This document shows, piece by piece, positions 13,086 through 37,682 of a DNA stretch of 64,000 nucleotides. The notes beneath the pieces were generated by a model that saw nothing but the letters and a program-made list of their open reading frames with translations, was not told the DNA's origin and did not search any database. Each line of letters begins with the position of its first letter. Positions within the stretch are counted from its first letter, which is position 1. The stretch comes from Vibrio ishigakensis (GTDB lineage Bacteria > Pseudomonadota > Gammaproteobacteria > Enterobacterales > Vibrionaceae). Made by a program: the position numbers and the translations under genes. The stretch is from the NCBI RefSeq assembly GCF_024347675.1, contig NZ_AP024882.1, positions 248,001 through 312,000 of the forward strand, read 5' to 3'.

Positions 13086-14534
13086 ATGACAACGCATACA
13101 CTACCTACTGAAGAGAAAAAGGGTGGCTTCTTTGCCAACTTTAAATTCCCTTCCGCCTATACGATCTTGTTTGCCTTGATCGCTATCGTTGCCCTTATGA
13201 CCTGGATTATTCCAGCAGGTCAATATGAGCGTGCAATGAATGAAGACCTTGGCCGTGAAGTACCTGTAACGGGTACCTATCATTCTGTGGATGCCAACCC
13301 GCAAGGGGTGGTTGACGTACTGCTTGCGCCTATCGATGGCTTCTATGACCACAACAGCTACGAAGCTGCCGCAATCGACGTTTCACTATTTATCCTTATT
13401 ATCGGTGGCTTCCTTGGCCTAGTAACCAAAACAGGTGCAATAGATGCCGGTATAGAGCGCGTCACAGCTCGTCTTAAAGGGCGAGAAGAGATGATGATCC
13501 CCATACTCATGGCACTGTTTGCAGCAGGGGGCACCGTCTATGGTATGGCAGAGGAATCTCTACCTTTCTATGCACTACTAGTACCTGTGATGATGGCAGC
13601 ACGTTTTGACCCTATGGTAGCGGCAGCCACTATTCTGCTGGGTGCTGGTATCGGCGTATTGGGTTCAACCATCAACCCGTTTGCTACCGTAATCGCAGCT
13701 AACGCGTCAGCGATTCCATTTACAGAAGGCATGCTACTTCGCGTGGTCATGCTAGTGGTTGGCTGGTTTATCTGTGTAGCTTATGTGATGCGCTACGCTC
13801 GCATGGTTCGTGAAGATGCAACTAAGTCAGTGGTTTACGATAAATACGAAGAGAACAAGGCACACTTCCTAGGAGACAAAGAAGAGGGCCAACTAGAATT
13901 CACTGGCACTCGCAAACTTATCCTTGGCATCTTCGTAGCCTCGTTTGGCGTAATGATCTATGGCGTAGCTGTAGTCGGTTGGTGGATGGCAGAGATCTCT
14001 GCAATGTTCCTAGCCGCTTCTATCATCGTTGGCCTAGTCGCTCGCATGAGCGAAGAAGACTTCACCACCAGCTTTATCGACGGTGCTCGAGACCTACTAG
14101 GTGTAGCGCTAATTATCGGTATCGCTCGCGGCATCGTAGTAGTCATGGACAACGGCATGATCACCGACACCATCTTGTTCAACGCCGAACAGATGATCAC
14201 TGGCTTGTCGTCTGTAGTGTTCATCAACGTGATGTTCTTTATCGAGGTCCTACTGTCATTCCTAGTCCCATCAACCTCAGGCCTAGCAGTGCTAACCATG
14301 CCTATCATGGCACCTCTGGCTGACTTCGCTGGCGTTGGTCGTGATCTAGTGATCACCGCATATCAATCTGCGGCGGGTCTAGTAAACCTAATCACCCCAA
14401 CCTCTGCGGTAGTAATGGGCGGCCTAGCAATCGCTCGCGTACCATATGTGCGCTGGGTTAAGTGGGTAATGCCATTAATAGGTATTCTGACTGTATTCTG
14501 TATGGTAGTGCTGAGCATCGGTGCTCTGATCTAG
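13086..14534 (+). CDS. YfcC-family transporter, probable arginine/ornithine exchanger
   Basis: 482 residues with about 11-13 membrane helices (for example YTILFALIAIVALMTWIIP near the N-terminus and a hydrophobic C-terminal helix). It belongs to the YfcC/ArcD-related ion transporter superfamily; conserved parts include ITPTSAVVMGGLAIA and GTVYGMAEESLPFYALLVP. It heads the arginine deiminase cluster, which suggests arginine import coupled to ornithine export. The start ATG 13086 has TCAGGAG upstream. An intrinsic terminator follows at 14560-14583, so arcA has its own promoter. Confidence 0.85.
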   Translation: MTTHTLPTEEKKGGFFANFKFPSAYTILFALIAIVALMTWIIPAGQYERAMNEDLGREVPVTGTYHSVDANPQGVVDVLLAPIDGFYDHNSYEAAAIDVSLFILIIGGFLGLVTKTGAIDAGIERVTARLKGREEMMIPILMALFAAGGTVYGMAEESLPFYALLVPVMMAARFDPMVAAATILLGAGIGVLGSTINPFATVIAANASAIPFTEGMLLRVVMLVVGWFICVAYVMRYARMVREDATKSVVYDKYEENKAHFLGDKEEGQLEFTGTRKLILGIFVASFGVMIYGVAVVGWWMAEISAMFLAASIIVGLVARMSEEDFTTSFIDGARDLLGVALIIGIARGIVVVMDNGMITDTILFNAEQMITGLSSVVFINVMFFIEVLLSFLVPSTSGLAVLTMPIMAPLADFAGVGRDLVITAYQSAAGLVNLITPTSAVVMGGLAIARVPYVRWVKWVMPLIGILTVFCMVVLSIGALI

Positions 14535-14559
14535 CCTAGAGACTGATACCTTTTCGAAG

Positions 14560-14583
14560 AAGCCACCTACGGGTGGCTTTTTT
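14560..14583 (+). terminator. intrinsic terminator after the YfcC-family gene
   Basis: AAGCCACC pairs with GGTGGCTT and is followed by further T residues. It lies 26 nt after the transporter stop codon. Confidence 0.75.
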
Positions 14584-14611
14584 GCGTTCGGAAGTAAAAA
14601 GATACGGAGCG

Positions 14612-14730
14612 AGCTATCAGCTATCAGCTATCAGCTATCAGCTATCAGCTATCAGCTATCAGCTATCAGCTATCAGCTATCAGCTATCAGCTATCAGCTA
14701 TCAGCTATCAGCTATCAGCTATCAGCTATC
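14612..14730. repeat. tandem repeat, 17 copies of the 7-mer AGCTATC
   Basis: Seventeen perfect copies of AGCTATC (119 bp) lie just after the transporter terminator. The same heptamer recurs in nine copies at 17899-17961, and degenerate reverse-orientation copies (CTGATAG, CTGAAAG, CTGACAG) lie near 15094-15125. Perfect identity implies recent slippage, so copy number should vary between strains. It is not coding and is not a CRISPR, since there are no spacers. Confidence 0.97.
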
Positions 14731-29527: not shown

Positions 29528-29932
29528 TCAATTTGTATTTGAATCGGGAATCAATTCTCGAAACTCAATCCATTTAGGATCAACAGCACTGCCTCCGATA
29601 AGCCCCAACTCACCAGTTTGTTCCCATAAAAGAAGCTTATTTGACCATTCTTGGCAAGTCCCCATACTAAAAGCTTGTGCCAATAAGGAGTCTTGAAGAA
29701 TTGTAGTATCAGAATCCATATTAATGCGATATAGGGCCATATCTAAGTTATGATTTAACTCTCCATTTCGATTACATTCCGCCACTTCACCTGCAACGTA
29801 ATTTATGTGACGCAGAAAATTAAATTCAGAGTATGACAGGTCAGATGCCGCAAATGATGCAGCACCCACCAAAGATTGTGCACAACCTACCAGCGCCACC
29901 GAAAACGCAAGGACCACGGTTTGCTTAATCAT
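29528..29932 (-). CDS. small lipoprotein of unknown function
   Basis: 134 residues with a lipobox ALVGC (Cys17), so it is probably anchored in the outer membrane. The remainder is soluble with three further cysteines and no recognised domain. Its start overlaps the stop of the outer-membrane protein gene by 1 nt, so the two are likely translationally coupled. A weak stem-loop (29492-29509) lies downstream. Confidence 0.65.
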   Translation of the reverse strand: MIKQTVVLAFSVALVGCAQSLVGAASFAASDLSYSEFNFLRHINYVAGEVAECNRNGELNHNLDMALYRINMDSDTTILQDSLLAQAFSMGTCQEWSNKLLLWEQTGELGLIGGSAVDPKWIEFRELIPDSNTN

Positions 29933-30447
29933 TAGAATTTAACTCTCAAACCAAACTCTGTTTGCGACATATCGCTGCCACTTAAAGAAGGGAACAAGAA
30001 CATACCGGTTTGTGCATATAGAGATACCGTTTTCTTTATCTCAGCTTCAACACCTACATTGAGTTTTGTATATAGCTCTGAGCCCGAGGCTTCCATACAA
30101 TAGGAATAACCACACATTTTGTAGTCATAAATGAATGCACCGAGCCCCGCTCCAACATATGGTTTAACCGCAAAGTCATCGTTGCCAAAATAAAAACCAA
30201 TTCGAGTATCAAGACCAAATGCCATTTCAGAGTTATCACTTGGCAAATCTAGGTTATTCAGAAATTCACCACCGATAGCTACAAACGCATTTTGTGAAAT
30301 CTGATTTTCTAATCCGATAGCCAAAGATAAGAACTGAACATCTTCGATATCAGAAGAACCTGCTTGTACGTAAATCTTGTTCTCTTCTGCGTAGACTGTA
30401 GCGATTGAACTCAAAGCTACTGCTGAAGCTAGTAATAATTTTTTCAT
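29932..30447 (-). CDS. small outer-membrane beta-barrel protein
   Basis: 171 residues. A signal peptide ending in VYAEE and alternating beta strands (KIYVQAGSSD, FLSLAIGLEN, FAVKPYVGAGLGAFIYD, VSLYAQTGMFLF) end in a terminal aromatic F (EFGLRVKF), the hallmark of an eight-stranded OmpX/OmpA-type barrel. The family resembles the outer-membrane beta-barrel domain (OMP_b-brl). It is encoded just before a small lipoprotein, so the pair may form an envelope unit. Confidence 0.8.
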   Translation of the reverse strand: MKKLLLASAVALSSIATVYAEENKIYVQAGSSDIEDVQFLSLAIGLENQISQNAFVAIGGEFLNNLDLPSDNSEMAFGLDTRIGFYFGNDDFAVKPYVGAGLGAFIYDYKMCGYSYCMEASGSELYTKLNVGVEAEIKKTVSLYAQTGMFLFPSLSGSDMSQTEFGLRVKF

Positions 30448-30725: not shown

Positions 30726-30998
30726 TTATTTGACTTGAAGAACTAGACCATCTTCAGTGTCGAGTAGAGTATATTTTTTATTACTATCACACTCTACTTG
30801 GTAGCCTTTTACGTTGGGTGCTACTTTAAAATCAGTTATTGTTGAACACTTGATCCCTCCGTCCTGAATCACTTGTAATGCAGCAACCATATTTTGAGTG
30901 TCTTTATTGATACTAGCTACTTCAGCTTTTGGTAAACCAAATGCTAAAACATTTAACGAAAGCAATAGTGTCGATAACGCGATAATAGTATTTTTCAT
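30726..30998 (-). CDS. small exported protein of unknown function
   Basis: 90 residues. The signal peptide ends near NVLAF. The mature part has two cysteines (GGIKCSTIT and YQVECDSNK) that could form a disulfide, and it ends with a short beta-rich segment. No family is recognised. It is probably monocistronic; the divergent promoter region (30999-31242) also serves the large lipoprotein operon. Confidence 0.6.
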   Translation of the reverse strand: MKNTIIALSTLLLSLNVLAFGLPKAEVASINKDTQNMVAALQVIQDGGIKCSTITDFKVAPNVKGYQVECDSNKKYTLLDTEDGLVLQVK

Positions 30999-31242
30999 AA
31001 TTAGTTCTCTAGACGTTTACTCTTCGTCGCCGAATACTAATGCGTACTAAGTACCATTGCAAGAGAAAATACAAACTTTCCCTTCAAAAATTGAAATTAG
31101 AAATAATCCTAATTTTTCAGTTGAAAAACGTATTAGGTACCTTATAATGCGAAAAAATTTGGCTCATAGGACAGGAAAGTAACGAGCCTTAGCTGATACA
31201 CATTATGGAATAACTTATCCTATTGAAATTGAAGGTAATTTA

Positions 31243-32652
31243 ATGAACTCGCTAAGAATCACATCTATTGTACTAGCTGTGACGGTTTCTTCTGGTTGCT
31301 CTAGCCTGAGCCAACGAAATGATTACAACAAACTAAATGAGCCCTTGCAAAAAGGAGATTTAGTTACCGCTCTGATGAATACAGAAAAACTAGCTGGAGA
31401 CATAGACCCTGTAGATGGCCAAGCAGATGATCTATTGTGGGCATTGCAAGCTGGAACGCTAAACCATGCGTCAGGCAATGACCAGAAAACAATCATGTAC
31501 TTTGACTCTGCGGAACGCTCGTTCAAAGATGAAAACTCGGAGGGTATGGTAAAGAATACAAGCGAAACTGCAGGAGCAGTTCTGGTAAACGATGCAATTC
31601 TAGATTATGAACCCACACAATATGACATGGTTTACGCCAATCACTACAAAGCTATGTCATTCTGGCACAAGGGTGATACTTCTATCGCACGTGTCGAATT
31701 CAATCGTGCAGAAGAGCGCCAACGTCGCGCAGCAGAGACTTTCGCTAACATAATTAACGAGCAAAAATCCCTAGCAAGTACAGAGGAAGCTCAACAAGTA
31801 AACTACGGCAAAATGATGAGTGACATTGATTCTAAAATGCAATCATCAGGCATCAATATGACTGGCTCTGAATGGGCACCATACGAAGGTTATATCAACC
31901 CCGCCGTAACATATGCCTCATCACTTTTCTTCATGTTAGAGGGACGATCTAAATCAGACTATGACAAAGCCGTAGATGGCTTCAAGCGAGTTTACGGGAT
32001 AAGCCAAAACGCATCGGTAAAAACAGACCTACAAATGGCACAAGCTTTCGCTAGTGGTCATTCAGACAATGAAATGAACCCTACTGTCTGGATTATTCAT
32101 GAAGATGGTTTGGCTCCTCAAAAGTCAGAATTTCGAGTTGATCTACCGGTTTTCCTATTAACCGGACAACCACAAATTGCCTCTTACGCTATTCCCAAAA
32201 TGGATTCCGGTAAATCAGCAATTAAATCCGTCAACGTCAACAATTACAAAACAACTGAAATCGCGGACGTTAGTAAAGTTATCAAATCCGAGTTCAAAGA
32301 AGAGCTACCAGCAATCAAAGCTCGTGCTGCAGCATCAAGTATTTCTAAAGTTATTATGCAAGCAGCAGCTGCTGAAGCAGCCAAAAATGACGACACCGGT
32401 GCCGGAGCATTGTTACAACTAGGTACGATGCTGTACAGCTTAGGCTCCACCAGTGCCGATATCCGAACAAACGTTTTGTTACCTAATACCGTGAACGCTG
32501 TTCGAATGCCTAAAGAAGACTCATTTGTAATGAAAGCGGGAGCATTTGAAATCCCGGTAACCACAGACCCTGACGCCAAATACTCAATCGTCTACGTGCG
32601 AACCATGAACTCAGTAATCGAGCCAACAGTTTCAGTTATCAACATTCAGTAA
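31243..32652 (+). CDS. COG3014-like lipoprotein, first gene of envelope operon
   Basis: 469 residues with lipobox VSSGC (Cys19). The N-terminal half is helical and TPR-like (KGDLVTALMNTEKLAG, LWALQAGTLNHASGNDQKTIMYFDSAE, MVYANHYKAMSFWHKGD). It is followed by an Ala-rich stretch and a beta-rich C-terminus. It matches my memory of the uncharacterised COG3014 lipoproteins that occur next to LpoB-like genes. GAAGG precedes the ATG. It lies 21 nt before the LpoB-like gene in a four-gene run of exported proteins. Function unknown; scaffold role inferred from repeats. Confidence 0.75.
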   Translation: MNSLRITSIVLAVTVSSGCSSLSQRNDYNKLNEPLQKGDLVTALMNTEKLAGDIDPVDGQADDLLWALQAGTLNHASGNDQKTIMYFDSAERSFKDENSEGMVKNTSETAGAVLVNDAILDYEPTQYDMVYANHYKAMSFWHKGDTSIARVEFNRAEERQRRAAETFANIINEQKSLASTEEAQQVNYGKMMSDIDSKMQSSGINMTGSEWAPYEGYINPAVTYASSLFFMLEGRSKSDYDKAVDGFKRVYGISQNASVKTDLQMAQAFASGHSDNEMNPTVWIIHEDGLAPQKSEFRVDLPVFLLTGQPQIASYAIPKMDSGKSAIKSVNVNNYKTTEIADVSKVIKSEFKEELPAIKARAAASSISKVIMQAAAAEAAKNDDTGAGALLQLGTMLYSLGSTSADIRTNVLLPNTVNAVRMPKEDSFVMKAGAFEIPVTTDPDAKYSIVYVRTMNSVIEPTVSVINIQ

Positions 32653-32673
32653 CCCTAAAAGTAGGCACTCTCC

Positions 32674-33282
32674 ATGAAAACACCTTATATCCTTGCGCTC
32701 TTTGCCGTCACTCTTCTGTCCGCAGGCTGCCAAACAACAACACAATATATCGATAGTAGAGATCAAACTACTAATATAACAGCCGGATTATCCAACGCTG
32801 ACTTCGAGAAAGCTGCTCAAGAGGCCTTGGAAGAAATGATAGCGTCCCCGCTTCTGGTACACCCTAAAGCACAAGCTGGCGGTCGCTACGTTATAGCAGT
32901 GAGTGATATTACTAATGACACTATGCAACGTATTTCAACAGAGCAAATAGCTAAGAAAATACGCGTTGGTTTACTTCAGTCTGGAAAATTCTTAGCTACA
33001 AGTGCTATTGGTGCTAACCAGGATGCACTTGTAATTGAATCTCGCAAAATGCAAGAGTCATCAATCGTAGATAAAAAAACTATGAAAGGTAATAACATAA
33101 TTATGCCTGATTTCTCTCTTTCAGGAACAATAATCCAACGAGTCAACTCCCTTGATAACGGTGACCAGAAAATAGAGTACTACTTCCAATTAACGCTCAC
33201 TAATTTAGACAACGGACTAGCATATTTCGAATCGGAAACGGTTATAGGAAAAGTGGCGGACGGATCCACTGTTAGTTGGTAA
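32674..33282 (+). CDS. LpoB-like lipoprotein (penicillin-binding-protein activator family)
   Basis: 202 residues with lipobox LSAGC (Cys19). The conserved segment RYVIAVSDITNDTMQRISTEQIAKKIRVGLLQSGKFLAT and the following beta strands match the LpoB/CsgG-like fold. E. coli LpoB spans the periplasm to activate PBP1b. The partner here need not be a PBP because the neighbours differ from the usual lpoB context (lpoB-ycfL/thiK). It is sandwiched between a COG3014-like lipoprotein and a 516-residue exported protein. Confidence 0.8.
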   Translation: MKTPYILALFAVTLLSAGCQTTTQYIDSRDQTTNITAGLSNADFEKAAQEALEEMIASPLLVHPKAQAGGRYVIAVSDITNDTMQRISTEQIAKKIRVGLLQSGKFLATSAIGANQDALVIESRKMQESSIVDKKTMKGNNIIMPDFSLSGTIIQRVNSLDNGDQKIEYYFQLTLTNLDNGLAYFESETVIGKVADGSTVSW

Positions 33283-33347
33283 CTCTGCAGGGGAGGAATC
33301 TCCTCCCCCCAGATGAGCTTAAAAATCCACTCCGGATGAGATAAGTA

Positions 33348-34898
33348 ATGAATAATCATATTGTTAAAAGTGCCGCGTTAGTTGGCACCCTTCTCTTCAA
33401 CCAAAACGCAATCGCTCTAGACTTTGGCTTCTCAGAAGAGAGGAGTTCGACAAATACACAAACTCATATTGAGCAACAGGCGACTCATGATCCTAACGCT
33501 AATGTGTCTGAAGGCATTACCGACTCTAAGAGAAAAAATTCAACATATGCAACGATAAGTCACAATGGTGCTGAGCAATTGGTCGAGAGTAGAATTGAAG
33601 ACTGGCTAGACTCTCCAGAGGGACGCCCATTTAAACAACAAATGGCGCTTCGAAAAATCAACATCTATACGGGAGTAGCTAGTAGCCCTACCCCTGGTGT
33701 TTCTATGCAACATATGCAATCAGCATTCGATGCCGCCATGGTTAATGCTCTTGAAAAAGCAGCTGAATCACAGTTCCTAAACGTGACTGGTGAGATGGTA
33801 AAAAGCTTAATAATTGAAGATCCTCAGTTTGCAAAAGACATTTGCTCTTTAGATCAAGATCTTGAGCAATCAGATCTTATCGCTAGAAAATCTATGAACC
33901 TAGCCACTACAGCAATATCGCAAGCAATCAAAAAAAACACCGACGCTAGCGATCAGCAAATTGAAAGAGATTTGAGTCCAATTCAACATAGTGTCGCAAG
34001 AACTAGCCTAGAAGATAGTATACAAAGAGCCATCAATGAGGGTACCCAAAAACCGGTAGAGGTAGATGGTCTCTTTGTTCTTCGTTCATTTTCAAGCGTG
34101 ACGGATCAAGGCGTTGCTATTCAGGGCGTTATTTTGATCGAACATAGCTTAACAACGGCATTAATTCGTCAAGCTAAAGGCTCCCGAGGAGATTTCAACC
34201 CCAAAGACTATGAAATACCAAAAGCTTTTCCAAAAATAGATGAAATGACCGATGAAAATGGCAATAACTTAGGCCTCTACACAATTCGAGACTATATAAA
34301 GTATGTTTCTCAAGACGCTTCTAGGGCCCCTTTTGGAGCCCAACTTGTGATTGATGCTAACGGTCAACTGACTTTTGTTGCAATTGGCTATAGCTCAGCA
34401 GAAACAACGAACAATGCCAGTCGAATGTCCGCTTACACAAAAGCAGCCCAAAAAAGGGCCAAGAGTATTGCCAATATCCAGATGCAATACCTTTCGAATT
34501 TAGTAGTTACTACAGAAACTACTATCAACGATAAAAACGCTTATATTGAAGAACTCGTACAAGACTACACAGACTGTTCAGCTACAGGTCAGGCCATACC
34601 AAGCATAAATACACCACTCTTGTCTAACAATATTACCTCTGTTGTCACGCTCAAAACTCAAGGAACGAGTATTGGCACTCAGCGAGATGTTATCCCGTAC
34701 ACAAACCCATATTTACCAGATCAAGAAACATGGTTGGGCTTCTCCTACTGGTCTCCGACCATGGAGAAAGAGATATACGAGATACAACAGGATAAAAAAA
34801 ATGCACTGACAAAAAACTCTCGTAGGCTATCTGTGAGCACGAACGCTAGTGACCAATCCTCCACTGAATCAATAACAACAATTTCGGCAGATTTCTAA
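33348..34898 (+). CDS. exported protein of unknown function, third gene of envelope operon
   Basis: 516 residues. The signal peptide ends near AIALD. No lipobox is visible. An N-terminal Gln/Thr-rich linker is followed by a mixed alpha/beta body (NALEKAAESQFLNVTGEM, GLFVLRSFSSVTDQGVAIQGVILIEHS, APFGAQLVIDANGQLTFVAIGYS) and a polar C-terminus. I suspect it belongs to the recently defined DUF6844 group seen beside COG3014 genes, but that is not certain. Its stop overlaps the start of the next gene, so translation is coupled. Confidence 0.65.
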   Translation: MNNHIVKSAALVGTLLFNQNAIALDFGFSEERSSTNTQTHIEQQATHDPNANVSEGITDSKRKNSTYATISHNGAEQLVESRIEDWLDSPEGRPFKQQMALRKINIYTGVASSPTPGVSMQHMQSAFDAAMVNALEKAAESQFLNVTGEMVKSLIIEDPQFAKDICSLDQDLEQSDLIARKSMNLATTAISQAIKKNTDASDQQIERDLSPIQHSVARTSLEDSIQRAINEGTQKPVEVDGLFVLRSFSSVTDQGVAIQGVILIEHSLTTALIRQAKGSRGDFNPKDYEIPKAFPKIDEMTDENGNNLGLYTIRDYIKYVSQDASRAPFGAQLVIDANGQLTFVAIGYSSAETTNNASRMSAYTKAAQKRAKSIANIQMQYLSNLVVTTETTINDKNAYIEELVQDYTDCSATGQAIPSINTPLLSNNITSVVTLKTQGTSIGTQRDVIPYTNPYLPDQETWLGFSYWSPTMEKEIYEIQQDKKNALTKNSRRLSVSTNASDQSSTESITTISADF

Positions 34899-36034
34899 TG
34901 AAACGTTTAATACTGATCATTTTCTTATTTATACCTTTAACTGGTAACGGAGCAACTTATGAAAAGGAAGTTACCGGTTACGGTAAAGATAGAGAAGAAG
35001 CCATTTACAATGCAAAACTGGAAGGAGTGAGACAATTTTTTGGCTCTGAATTATCTTCGGTCCAAATCCAAAAAATGACTGTTGAAACGGGAGGACTGAC
35101 TGACAAAGCGGAACTATCACTCGAGAATGGTTCAACTGAAGGCTTCAAAGGCAGAATCTCTAATTACGATATTATACAGGTGGACTGTCAGGAAACTTGT
35201 ACTGCCACTCTTTTACTTAGGTTTGAGAAAGATGAATCTCAGATAGAAAAAGAGAAGCTGCTCACTCGTAAAACAATTCTATTCACCAACCCTGTAGGTG
35301 AAGGGGCTATGGAGTTACAAACTGGACTACAAGCTAAGTTTGTTCAAGCTAGAAAGTTCGCTGTTGTTGAAGAAAATATACCAGGGCTAGATTATTCAGT
35401 TGAGCTCCGCGTTAAAGCTGCACGAACCAAAAAGTTTACATCTGGATCTACAAAAACAGACCCACTAACCGGCAATGTGACTTCAAATATTAAAAACAAC
35501 TACAAATCTTTAATAAGCGTAGACTTCAAAGTCTATAGAACAGCTACCGGTCAAGTTTTAGTTCAGGACAACATCAAAACAACGTCTAGCAGAAATAACT
35601 TACCTCTATTAAAAAATATTACTGTTGAAAAACTGTATAACGCTATTCATGAACAAATTTTTCCTCATCGAATAGCTAAAGTTAGTGGTAATGAGGTTAT
35701 CGTTGCTTCTGGAGGTGACACTATGAGAGTAGGCGATGTATACGAAGTTTACTCTCTGTCAGAAGAGATATTTGATCCCTACACTGGGGAGTCACTTGGG
35801 CAAGAGGAAACCAAAACAAGTGAATTAAAGATCACTAGGGTATTGCCCAAATTGTCTTACGCTAAAATATCCGGCAAAGGTTCAGTAAAAAAACACGATA
35901 TAATCCGTAAAAAAAAGCGGATTCCATCTAAGCCTAAACAAGTAAAAGCCGACAAAACGAACACTATTAAATCACCTATCACCCCTGCAGGAAATAGTGT
36001 GGTAGATACTAAAAATGGTGGCGTTATCCTTTAG
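34898..36034 (+). CDS. FlgT/CsgG-like exported protein, last gene of envelope operon
   Basis: 378 residues with a signal peptide ending at GNGA. The N-terminal domain EVTGYGKDREEAIYNAKLEGVRQFFGSEL resembles the first domain of FlgT and related proteins; the middle part (about 130-270) resembles the CsgG/LpoB-type fold; the segment MRVGDVYEVYSLSEEIFDPYTGESLG is typical of the C-terminal domain of FlgT-like proteins. The C-terminus is Lys-rich. FlgT is a component of the Vibrio flagellar H-ring, but no flagellar gene is nearby. The gene begins at the TAATG overlap and is followed by a strong terminator at 36102-36136. Confidence 0.7.
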   Translation: MKRLILIIFLFIPLTGNGATYEKEVTGYGKDREEAIYNAKLEGVRQFFGSELSSVQIQKMTVETGGLTDKAELSLENGSTEGFKGRISNYDIIQVDCQETCTATLLLRFEKDESQIEKEKLLTRKTILFTNPVGEGAMELQTGLQAKFVQARKFAVVEENIPGLDYSVELRVKAARTKKFTSGSTKTDPLTGNVTSNIKNNYKSLISVDFKVYRTATGQVLVQDNIKTTSSRNNLPLLKNITVEKLYNAIHEQIFPHRIAKVSGNEVIVASGGDTMRVGDVYEVYSLSEEIFDPYTGESLGQEETKTSELKITRVLPKLSYAKISGKGSVKKHDIIRKKKRIPSKPKQVKADKTNTIKSPITPAGNSVVDTKNGGVIL

Positions 36035-36101: not shown

Positions 36102-36136
36102 GAATGGTCTTCTCGCACAGAAGGCCATTCTTTTTT
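36102..36136 (+). terminator. strong intrinsic terminator of the envelope operon
   Basis: GAATGGTCTTCT (36102-36113) pairs with AGAAGGCCATTC (36119-36130) and is followed by six T. It overlaps the 3' end of the convergent glutamate-synthase-like gene. Confidence 0.8.
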
Positions 36137-37682
36137 ATTTATCTAAACCCATTCCTGAAAATCGAATACCAGACAAATGCGCCATATCCCTATTCCAAGT
36201 AGCTAAGTCTTTTTGATTAAACTGCCCCAAGTCATTGTGTCCACATGCTCTGGCCATTACCTGCATAAGTTCTGTCGATGCTTCGAAAAAGTTCTTAAGC
36301 TGGTTAGAAGCCTTATCAACATTGAGCCTCTGACGCAGATCCTTTTTCTGAGTAGCTATGCCCGCAGGACAGTTATTGGTATTACACATTCGTGCAGCTA
36401 CACAGCCAATAGACTGCATCGCACTGTTGGAAATAGCCACACCATCAGCTCCCAACGCCATGGCTTTAACAAAATCCATCGGCACGCGAAGCCCACCGGT
36501 GATAATCAAGGTCACTCGACCACTGGCTCCTACCGAATCCAAATAGGCTCTAGCCCTTGCAAGCGCGGGAATGGTTGGCACACTAATATGATCCCTAAAC
36601 ATCTGTGGCGCCGCACCAGTACCACCGCCGCGACCGTCTAATATGATGTAGTCTGCGCTGGCATCCAGAGCAAACTGAATATCCTCTTCAATATGGTTAG
36701 CACTGAGTTTGAAACCAACAGGAATACCACCTGTCACCTCTCGAACTCGGTCGGCAAACTTCCTAAAGTCTTCTACCGTATGTAAGTCCTTAAAGGTAGG
36801 TGGAGAGATGGCAGCTGTACCCGCTTTAATTCCACGCACTTCTGCGATTTTACCAATATTTTTCACACCTGGCAGATGGCCACCGGTACCAGTTTTAGCC
36901 CCCTGACCACCTTTAAAATGAAACGCCTGCACAGTCTTAAGCTTTGACTCTTCATAGCCAAACCCAGCACTGGCAAGCTCATAAAAGTAACGTGAATTGG
37001 CTGCTTGCTCCTCGGGGAGCATTCCCCCTTCGCCAGAGCAAATCCCAGTACCGGCGAGTTCTGCACCCTTGGCTAGAGAGACCTTTGCCTCTTCAGAGAG
37101 TGCTCCAAAGCTCATGTCTGAGACAAACAAAGGGATCTTGAGTTTAAGGGGTTTTCGAGCCTGCGGGCCTATGACTAATTCAGTCGAAACGGGAACATCT
37201 TCCATCAAAGGCTTAGTCGCCATCTGCGCCACCATCACCTGAATATCATCCCAGTGAGGAAGTAAGTGACGCGGAACGCCCATAGAGGTCATAGGGCCGT
37301 GATGCCCCATTTTCGAGAGACCTTCTCGGGCCAGTTGATGAATAAACTCCACCGTCGGTTCTTCTTTGGTTGGAGTCGCAGTAGGTATAACCTCTACGTT
37401 CTGGATCTGTACGCCAGGCCCTTCTTGGCCAACTTGATCATCGCTAAACTGCTTATGTGAACCATCGCAGAAAGGCAGATTATTCGAGTGCTTACAGCGA
37501 CATAGATAGTTGTCACCGTCCTGCTCTGCCACAAAGCTCTTTGGCTTAAAGTCAGTGCTGGCGTGGGAGCCATCACAAAAGGGTTGGTTCTTGGAGAGCC
37601 CGCAGGTACAAAAGTAATACTCCTGCCCCTTGGTGAGTTCAACTTTGATCGGCTTGTTATCTGCGATGACTGGTTTACTCAT
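36135..37682 (-). CDS. two CDGSH iron-sulfur domains fused to a glutamate-synthase-type FMN domain
   Basis: 515 residues. Two N-terminal CDGSH ([2Fe-2S], mitoNEET-type) motifs are visible: Cys25, Cys27, Cys36, His40 and Cys61, Cys63, Cys72, His76. From about residue 120 there is the central FMN-binding domain of glutamate synthases (AFHFKGGQGAKTGTGGHLPG, ADYIILDGRGGGTGAAP, GADGVAISNSAMQSIGC, CNTNNCPAGIATQ). It lacks the amidotransferase domain, so it is not a normal GltB. Electron flow from CDGSH clusters to FMN is a reasonable inference. It is followed on the same strand, upstream, by a TetR regulator. Substrate unknown. Confidence 0.85.
   Translation of the reverse strand: MSKPVIADNKPIKVELTKGQEYYFCTCGLSKNQPFCDGSHASTDFKPKSFVAEQDGDNYLCRCKHSNNLPFCDGSHKQFSDDQVGQEGPGVQIQNVEVIPTATPTKEEPTVEFIHQLAREGLSKMGHHGPMTSMGVPRHLLPHWDDIQVMVAQMATKPLMEDVPVSTELVIGPQARKPLKLKIPLFVSDMSFGALSEEAKVSLAKGAELAGTGICSGEGGMLPEEQAANSRYFYELASAGFGYEESKLKTVQAFHFKGGQGAKTGTGGHLPGVKNIGKIAEVRGIKAGTAAISPPTFKDLHTVEDFRKFADRVREVTGGIPVGFKLSANHIEEDIQFALDASADYIILDGRGGGTGAAPQMFRDHISVPTIPALARARAYLDSVGASGRVTLIITGGLRVPMDFVKAMALGADGVAISNSAMQSIGCVAARMCNTNNCPAGIATQKKDLRQRLNVDKASNQLKNFFEASTELMQVMARACGHNDLGQFNQKDLATWNRDMAHLSGIRFSGMGLDK

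What the first reader, a model, noticed from the sequence alone, without database searches (positions are those of the whole stretch)
31243..36034. Candidate undescribed envelope system: COG3014-LpoB-unknown-FlgT/CsgG-like operon
Four exported proteins are encoded in one tight unit (gaps 21, 65 and -1 nt) with one promoter region and one strong terminator. Two are lipoproteins. Two carry folds of the CsgG/LpoB/FlgT type, which elsewhere build rings or regulate peptidoglycan synthases across the outer membrane. TPR-like repeats in the first suggest a scaffold. No curli, flagellar or PBP gene is nearby, so they may form a dedicated periplasm-spanning complex.
Basis: partly seen in the sequence, partly recalled or inferred. 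Interest (0 to 1): 0.7.

Follow-up and report, generated by a model that had tools for sequence, protein, structure and literature searches.

The report
Conserved four-gene outer-membrane lipoprotein operon
Four neighbouring genes for exported cell-envelope proteins travel together in distantly related bacteria and may build an outer-membrane collar that is not part of a flagellum; no description of the set turned up in the papers searched.

The parts
31121..31148 (+). promoter-like site TTGAAA-16-TATAAT upstream of ORF1
   Evidence: consensus scan, 11 of 12 matches; not evidence of function by itself
31243..32652 (+). ORF1, COG3014-family protein, 469 aa, lipobox-like Cys19
   Evidence: some full-length relatives named COG3014 family protein by a source, others hypothetical; G18-C19 nearly invariant and AR-E-NR--RQ core invariant in A1; a held-out profile of 18 distant rows hits it at 2.9e-144
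32674..33282 (+). ORF2, LpoB-family protein, 202 aa, lipobox-like Cys19, C-terminal Trp
   Evidence: PF13036 3.3e-33, TIGR02722 2.5e-36; Cys in 37 of 37 aligned rows
33290..33308 (+). 8-bp G+C-rich hairpin between ORF2 and ORF3, no T run in the window
   Evidence: z -3.53 for the 65-nt gap; 13 of 26 loci with gap >= 35 nt have z <= -2 in the 45 nt after lpoB, against 1 of 33 with shorter gaps
33348..34898 (+). ORF3, divergent DUF6844 protein, 516 aa, exported, C-terminal ADF
34898..36034 (+). ORF4, FlgT-like (N-M-C) exported protein, 378 aa, no lipobox
   Evidence: hhalign of its family to FlgT over full length 99.1%, E 1.6e-18; model to FlgT 8z5n_0 1.3e-15 and 3w1e 8.6e-15; no Pfam hit on the window sequence itself
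36102..36130 (+). terminator-like hairpin with T run after ORF4
   Evidence: 12 pairs, 5 G-C

Best explanation
The four genes encode one outer-membrane-anchored periplasmic assembly. Shown by sequence: they are one conserved gene set; ORF1 and ORF2 carry lipobox-like sites; ORF2 is of the LpoB family; ORF4 has the FlgT three-domain layout; ORF3 is of the DUF6844 kind. Inferred: ORF1 (TPR-like by homology to its paralogue) and ORF2 sit on the inner face of the outer membrane as a conserved base, a cousin of the core COG3014-(YcfL)-LpoB set; ORF4, with ORF3, packs on this base into a collar, as FlgT does with lipoproteins FlgO and FlgP in the Vibrio H-ring, but without a flagellum. ORF3-ORF4 are the fast-changing, exchangeable part, which I take to meet the variable partner (surface or substrate). 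What passes through or docks on the collar is not known.
For: Same 19 of 329 genomes carry window-type ORF1, ORF3 and ORF4. All four together in a permuted order in three small gammaproteobacterial genomes. 47 of 80 COG3014 loci from genome contigs carry all four. DUF1425 is the only strongly recurrent extra neighbour (43 ORFs, 19 taxon labels; next cluster 9 ORFs, 7 labels). ORF4 family colinear with FlgT, model ranks FlgT first in Foldseek. ORF3 model matches 4qvr in the second look. No FlgI or FlgT_N match in the window's genome. Tree conflict between halves, and DNA similarity to the G164 copy ending 4 nt after the ORF2 stop.
Confidence: 0.42

Rival explanations
1. The operon is a second peptidoglycan-synthase activator: ORF2 works as LpoB and switches on PBP1B through its UB2H domain, with the others as helpers.
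For: ORF2 passes the LpoB equivalog cut-off. The window's genome encodes a UB2H protein (3.7e-27), and UB2H is over cut-off in 8 of the 13 tested genomes that hold all four genes.
Against: The same genome has a core LpoB that fits the family far better (184 against 115 bits). 5 of 13 full-set genomes have no UB2H match over cut-off: two are 99% complete, three are metagenome-assembled; nor has any of the 12 tested genomes with a partial set (most are metagenome-assembled). The stretch from Cys to the domain is 23-28 residues in 37 of 37 rows, against a 145 A disordered reach in E. coli (PMC6220978, passages); the core Vibrio LpoB is equally short, so this point is weak.
Confidence: 0.25
2. A CsgG-like export channel: ORF4 and/or ORF3 form an outer-membrane pore for a product encoded elsewhere.
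For: 28 of 47 ORF4 relatives score CsgG at E <= 0.01; Foldseek ranks CsgG chains high.
Against: ORF4 has no lipobox, and its family matches FlgT over the whole length. No curli-like partner was seen among the 22 widest flank clusters (by eye). No test of membrane insertion was made.
Confidence: 0.15
3. A flagellar accessory ring (extra H-ring) for motility.
For: ORF4 family is colinear with FlgT; 19 of 25 tested genomes with the set or part of it have FlgI, 10 of 13 with the full set.
Against: The window's own 99.99% complete genome has neither FlgI nor FlgT_N; two other full-set genomes lack FlgI. No flagellar family among the 22 widest flank clusters (by eye).
Confidence: 0.03
4. An envelope quality-control or lipoprotein-handling module with no ring, in which LpoB-, FlgT- and TPR-type folds act as single binders.
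For: TolB, PelC, LptE-type and PqiC folds score like CsgG for ORF4, and several of these do not build rings by themselves (recalled).
Against: The FlgT match spans all three domains rather than one.
Confidence: 0.15

Closest known systems
core hinT-COG3014-ycfL-lpoB locus (same genome, contig C1; hinT named by reading, E. coli lpoB neighbourhood recalled)
   Same: COG3014 and LpoB in the same order; a DUF1425 (YcfL) gene sits between them there and in many module loci
   Different: no DUF6844 or FlgT-like gene; the module LpoB is a separate subfamily ending in Trp (95 of 97 copies, some duplicate loci counted; the 2 core ones end in Leu)
Vibrio flagellar H-ring (FlgO, FlgP, FlgT; PMC7990780, passages)
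   Same: outer-membrane lipoproteins plus a FlgT-type periplasmic protein; ORF4 family colinear with FlgT
   Different: genome has no FlgI or FlgT_N match; ORF2 and ORF3 are not demonstrably FlgO and FlgP
Francisella FTT1537c-FTT1540c operon (PMC4696196 and PMC8149597, passages)
   Same: FTT1540c is listed as LpoB (K07337), FTT1539c is the solved DUF6844 protein 4qvr; the order LpoB-DUF6844-ORF4-COG3014 in L171-L173 fits this operon.
   Different: gene order; ORF4 in L171-L173 matches only profile positions 126-363 of 398, so lacks the N domain
E. coli LpoB-PBP1B
   Same: family sequence and lipobox-like Cys of ORF2; UB2H present in the window's genome
   Different: short stretch before the domain; UB2H under cut-off in 5 of 13 full-set genomes tested
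CsgG curli transporter
   Same: CsgG-type middle domain in ORF4 relatives
   Different: ORF4 has no lipobox and has extra N and C domains

Membership tests
LpoB (PBP1B activator) | curated family score | tested here: met
   TIGR02722 125.5 bits, cut-off 110.55
LpoB (PBP1B activator) | outer-membrane lipoprotein | tested here: inconclusive
   lipobox-like Cys in 37 of 37 rows; no predictor run, location not measured
LpoB (PBP1B activator) | long disordered linker that spans the periplasm | tested here: not met
   23-28 residues from Cys to domain in 37 of 37 rows; core Vibrio LpoB is equally short
LpoB (PBP1B activator) | UB2H partner in the same genome | tested here: inconclusive
   present in the window's genome; over cut-off in 8 of 13 full-set and 0 of 12 part-set genomes
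LpoB (PBP1B activator) | stimulates PBP1B | not testable with these tools
   needs an enzyme assay
FlgT | N-M-C domain layout | tested here: met
   family profile against FlgT 99.1%, columns 3-379 to 19-401; the window sequence alone gives no Pfam hit
FlgT | part of a flagellar basal body | tested here: not met
   no FlgI and no FlgT_N match in the genome
DUF6844 | Pfam PF20891 match | tested here: inconclusive
   no match on window ORF3 itself and held-out HMM misses it; 39 of 40 aligned rows match at E <= 0.01, among them the G014 copy that is 27% identical to it
DUF6844 | fold of the solved member 4qvr | tested here: met
COG3014 | sequence family | tested here: met
   full-length relatives, some named COG3014 family protein; held-out profile 2.9e-144. 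No COG model was held.
CsgG | lipoprotein with CsgG domain forming a secretion pore | tested here: not met
   ORF4 has no lipobox (read from sequence); pore not testable

The most novel reading that the evidence does not exclude
A non-flagellar relative of the flagellar H-ring: an outer-membrane machine with a conserved lipoprotein base (COG3014, LpoB-like) and a replaceable DUF6844-FlgT-like head that bacteria swap as a pair; the full set occurs in Pseudomonadota and Thermodesulfobacteriota, and most likely in Francisella, where the DUF6844 member is a reported antigen.
Probability: 0.3. Interest if true: 0.82.

Novelty: new variant of a known kind. Interest (0 to 1): 0.6.

Why it matters
FlgT is known to me only from flagella and LpoB only as a PBP1B switch. 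This module carries relatives of both, in a genome without FlgI and in some genomes without a UB2H match, which asks whether H-ring-type collars began as, or became, a general outer-membrane device. It also gives a context to DUF6844, which has a solved structure and a reported Francisella antigen, and for which my searches turned up no described function.

Tried and rejected
An ORF3 protein search found no homologue among 7999 scored candidates; the single-sequence genome-contig scan with ORF1 found none; the alignment scan worked.

One search listed three genomes for ORF3; G247:C103 is a false hit to an AAA+SPOR protein. The true G247 copy is on C63.

Direct profile proof that window ORF3 is DUF6844 failed: a 37-row held-out HMM does not detect it up to E 10. 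The case rests on the G014 intermediate, hhalign and the model.

The small divergent ORF 30726-30998 was considered as a fifth part; among the loci searched it was found only in the window and G164, so it was left out. Rfam gave no match. PHROGs gave only weak families of unknown function.

I had first counted all 25 as operon genomes. As 8 of 13 full-set genomes have UB2H, I raised the LpoB rival from 0.20 to 0.25 and lowered the best reading from 0.45 to 0.42 and the no-ring rival from 0.17 to 0.15.

Rows dropped: A1 holds 22 of 26 hits plus the window; A2 47 of 51 non-redundant rows (two pieces of a split L009 gene, a cut L034 and L014 left out); A3 40 of 41 (L014 left out); A4 leaves out L058 and adds L119; A6 25 of 41. 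Trees use 29 hand-picked loci; the tree uses 98 rows after six loci that I judged duplicates, and L121, were removed. The 25 genomes were hand-picked. Genome searches score only the best few candidates a genome (4-5).
Full report
OBSERVATION. A promoter-like site (11 of 12) lies 94 nt before ORF1 and a 12-pair terminator-like hairpin after ORF4. ORF1 and ORF2 have lipobox-like sites; ORF3 and ORF4 start with signal-peptide-like stretches without such a Cys (read from the sequence, no predictor). One correction: the 65-nt gap holds a strong hairpin (z -3.53, 0 of 200 shuffles). Among loci with an ORF2-ORF3 gap of 35 nt or more, 13 of 26 have z <= -2 in the 45 nt after the lpoB stop, against 1 of 33 loci with shorter gaps (some loci are close kin). 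Sequences differ between loci and several end in a T run, so the site may act as an attenuator or mRNA-stability element; that is inference.

A CORE PARALOGUE. The window's genome (4.79 Mb, two contigs, window on C2) has a second COG3014-LpoB pair on C1, in the order hinT-like gene (by reading), COG3014, DUF1425 (YcfL), LpoB. That COG3014 copy has detectable TPRs. The window operon is thus a cousin of this set with ORF3 and ORF4 added and the DUF1425 gene missing. In many other genomes a DUF1425-type gene is kept between ORF1 and ORF2: it is the widest flank cluster, 43 ORFs under 19 taxon labels; the next, an ABC-transporter ATPase by its look, has 9 ORFs under 7 labels.

CO-OCCURRENCE. In 329 Vibrionaceae genomes, window-type ORF1 (E below 1e-148; the next genomes are at 1e-45) occurs in 19, ORF3 in 19 (E <= 0.001) and ORF4 in 19 (E below 1e-60; one further genome, G041, at 9e-15; matches weaker than 1e-10 were not asked for), and the 19 are the same genomes, under six genus codes. 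If genomes were independent, two such sets would coincide with a chance of 3e-31; they are related, so this is only a guide. Of 80 loci found through COG3014 in genome contigs (the best 80 of 279), 47 have all four genes, 11 lack ORF3 (Achromobacter, Planctomycetota), 19 have only ORF1-ORF2 and 3 only ORF1; some contigs end close by. The full set is in Pseudomonadota and Thermodesulfobacteriota. These loci were chosen by ORF1. An independent draw, DUF6844 in 369 genomes of the class, gave 7 genomes (this model misses the window's own copy): ORF4 is beside ORF3 or one gene away in 7 of 7, and ORF1 and ORF2 are detected in 4 of 7. In three of these, small genomes of one family, the order is LpoB-DUF6844-ORF4-COG3014. 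A paper calls FTT1537c-FTT1540c one predicted operon of four genes and reports attenuation of an FTT1538c insertion mutant, polar effects not excluded (PMC4696196, passages); another lists FTT1540c as LpoB (PMC8149597, passage), and FTT1539c is 4qvr; so Francisella most likely has the same set. FTT1539c is reported as an immunoreactive antigen (PMC4207810, PMC10963506, passages).

WHAT IT IS NOT, AND WHAT IT MIGHT BE. The window's genome has no FlgI and no FlgT_N match although it is 99.99% complete. Of 25 hand-picked genomes, 13 hold all four genes and 12 a part; FlgI is missing in 6 of 25, three of them full-set (G000, G527, G631). A flagellar role is excluded for this copy and not general. 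UB2H, the part of PBP1B that E. coli LpoB binds (PMC6220978, passages), is over cut-off in 8 of 13 full-set genomes, the window's own among them, and in 0 of 12 with a part (11 of 25 at E <= 0.001). Of the 5 full-set genomes without it, two are 99% complete and three are metagenome-assembled. PBP1B activation is therefore a live rival here, though it does not fit every carrier.

TWO HALVES. Against its nearest relative, G164 (L124), the window's ORF1 and ORF2 are 81% and 86% identical, but ORF3 and ORF4 only 22% and 35%. DNA similarity (74%) runs from 31216 to 33286, that is from just before ORF1 to 4 nt past the ORF2 stop; the only other matching patch is the small ORF upstream (30727-30962, 70%), and nothing matches downstream. 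Trees place the window with G164 for ORF1 (100) and ORF2 (98/92), but with G014 for ORF4 (98/96) and ORF3 (100/100), and an AU test rejects window+G164 for ORF4 (p 0.0016) and ORF3 (p 3e-5). The tool warns that the window and G014 are long branches that meet in the ORF4 tree, so fast change may add to, or mimic, exchange. Across 171 pairs of Vibrionaceae loci the median identities are 47, 61, 37 and 45% for ORF1 to ORF4. In Photobacterium obscurum ORF1 lies opposite to ORF2-ORF3-ORF4. I read this as a conserved base and a replaceable head, with the hairpin at the seam. ORF3 ends in Phe or Trp in 65 of 65 copies and ORF2 in Trp in 95 of 97 (counts include a few duplicate loci), which hints at end-docking motifs; untested.

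MECHANISM. ORF1 and ORF2 probably anchor at the outer membrane; ORF4, with ORF3, builds on them as FlgT does with FlgO and FlgP in the Vibrio H-ring (composition from PMC7990780, passages). Lipobox-like sites, FlgT layout and gene linkage are shown by sequence; complex, ring and function are inferred. Rivals are listed with their tests.

NOVELTY. Full-text searches for COG3014 and for DUF6844 gave no paper; FlgT with LpoB and CsgG gave none; LpoB with YcfL gave five, seen as a listing only. Searches for Francisella locus tags gave a few papers, of which I saw passages of four and the rest as listings. Subscription papers and preprints were not searched. The families are known; their union as a non-flagellar, exchangeable outer-membrane module is, as far as these searches go, not described. 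I rate it a new variant of a known kind, as the ring itself is unproved.

Noticed in passing
window 31216-33286 against L124: Sharp end of DNA similarity just after the ORF2 stop, with conflicting trees for the two operon halves.
   Followed up: yes
L014:1422-5083 (Photobacterium obscurum): ORF1 lies on the strand opposite to ORF2-ORF3-ORF4, so the set is split into two transcription directions.
   Followed up: no
L009 (Photobacterium sp. JCM 19050), about 13569-14674: The ORF4 gene is in two pieces (119 and 231 aa); draft error or decay, not examined.
   Followed up: no
window 30726-30998 (-): A 90-aa exported-looking ORF with no Pfam match over a curated cut-off, found beside the operon only here and in G164 (L124).
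   Followed up: partly
window 36135-37682 (-): Glutamate synthase-type protein with CDGSH iron-sulphur domains at its N-terminus, convergent with the operon.
   Followed up: partly
window 29528-30447 (-): A 171-aa beta-barrel-type protein and a 134-aa lipoprotein-like ORF overlap by one base upstream of the operon.
   Followed up: no
L174:4890-6347: An unknown 485-aa ORF lies between the DUF6844 and FlgT-like genes in one gammaproteobacterium, without detected COG3014 or LpoB nearby.
   Followed up: no
alignment A3 (ORF3 family): 3 of 40 DUF6844-type rows carry an extra GYF_2 domain; by the look of the alignment these are the desulfobacterial ones (L027, L029, L035).
   Followed up: no
L010 and L011 flanks: Type IV pilus-like genes (pilA/B/C/D by their look) lie near the operon in Oceanisphaera and Oceanimonas; of note as ORF4's C part resembles TsaP.
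   Followed up: no
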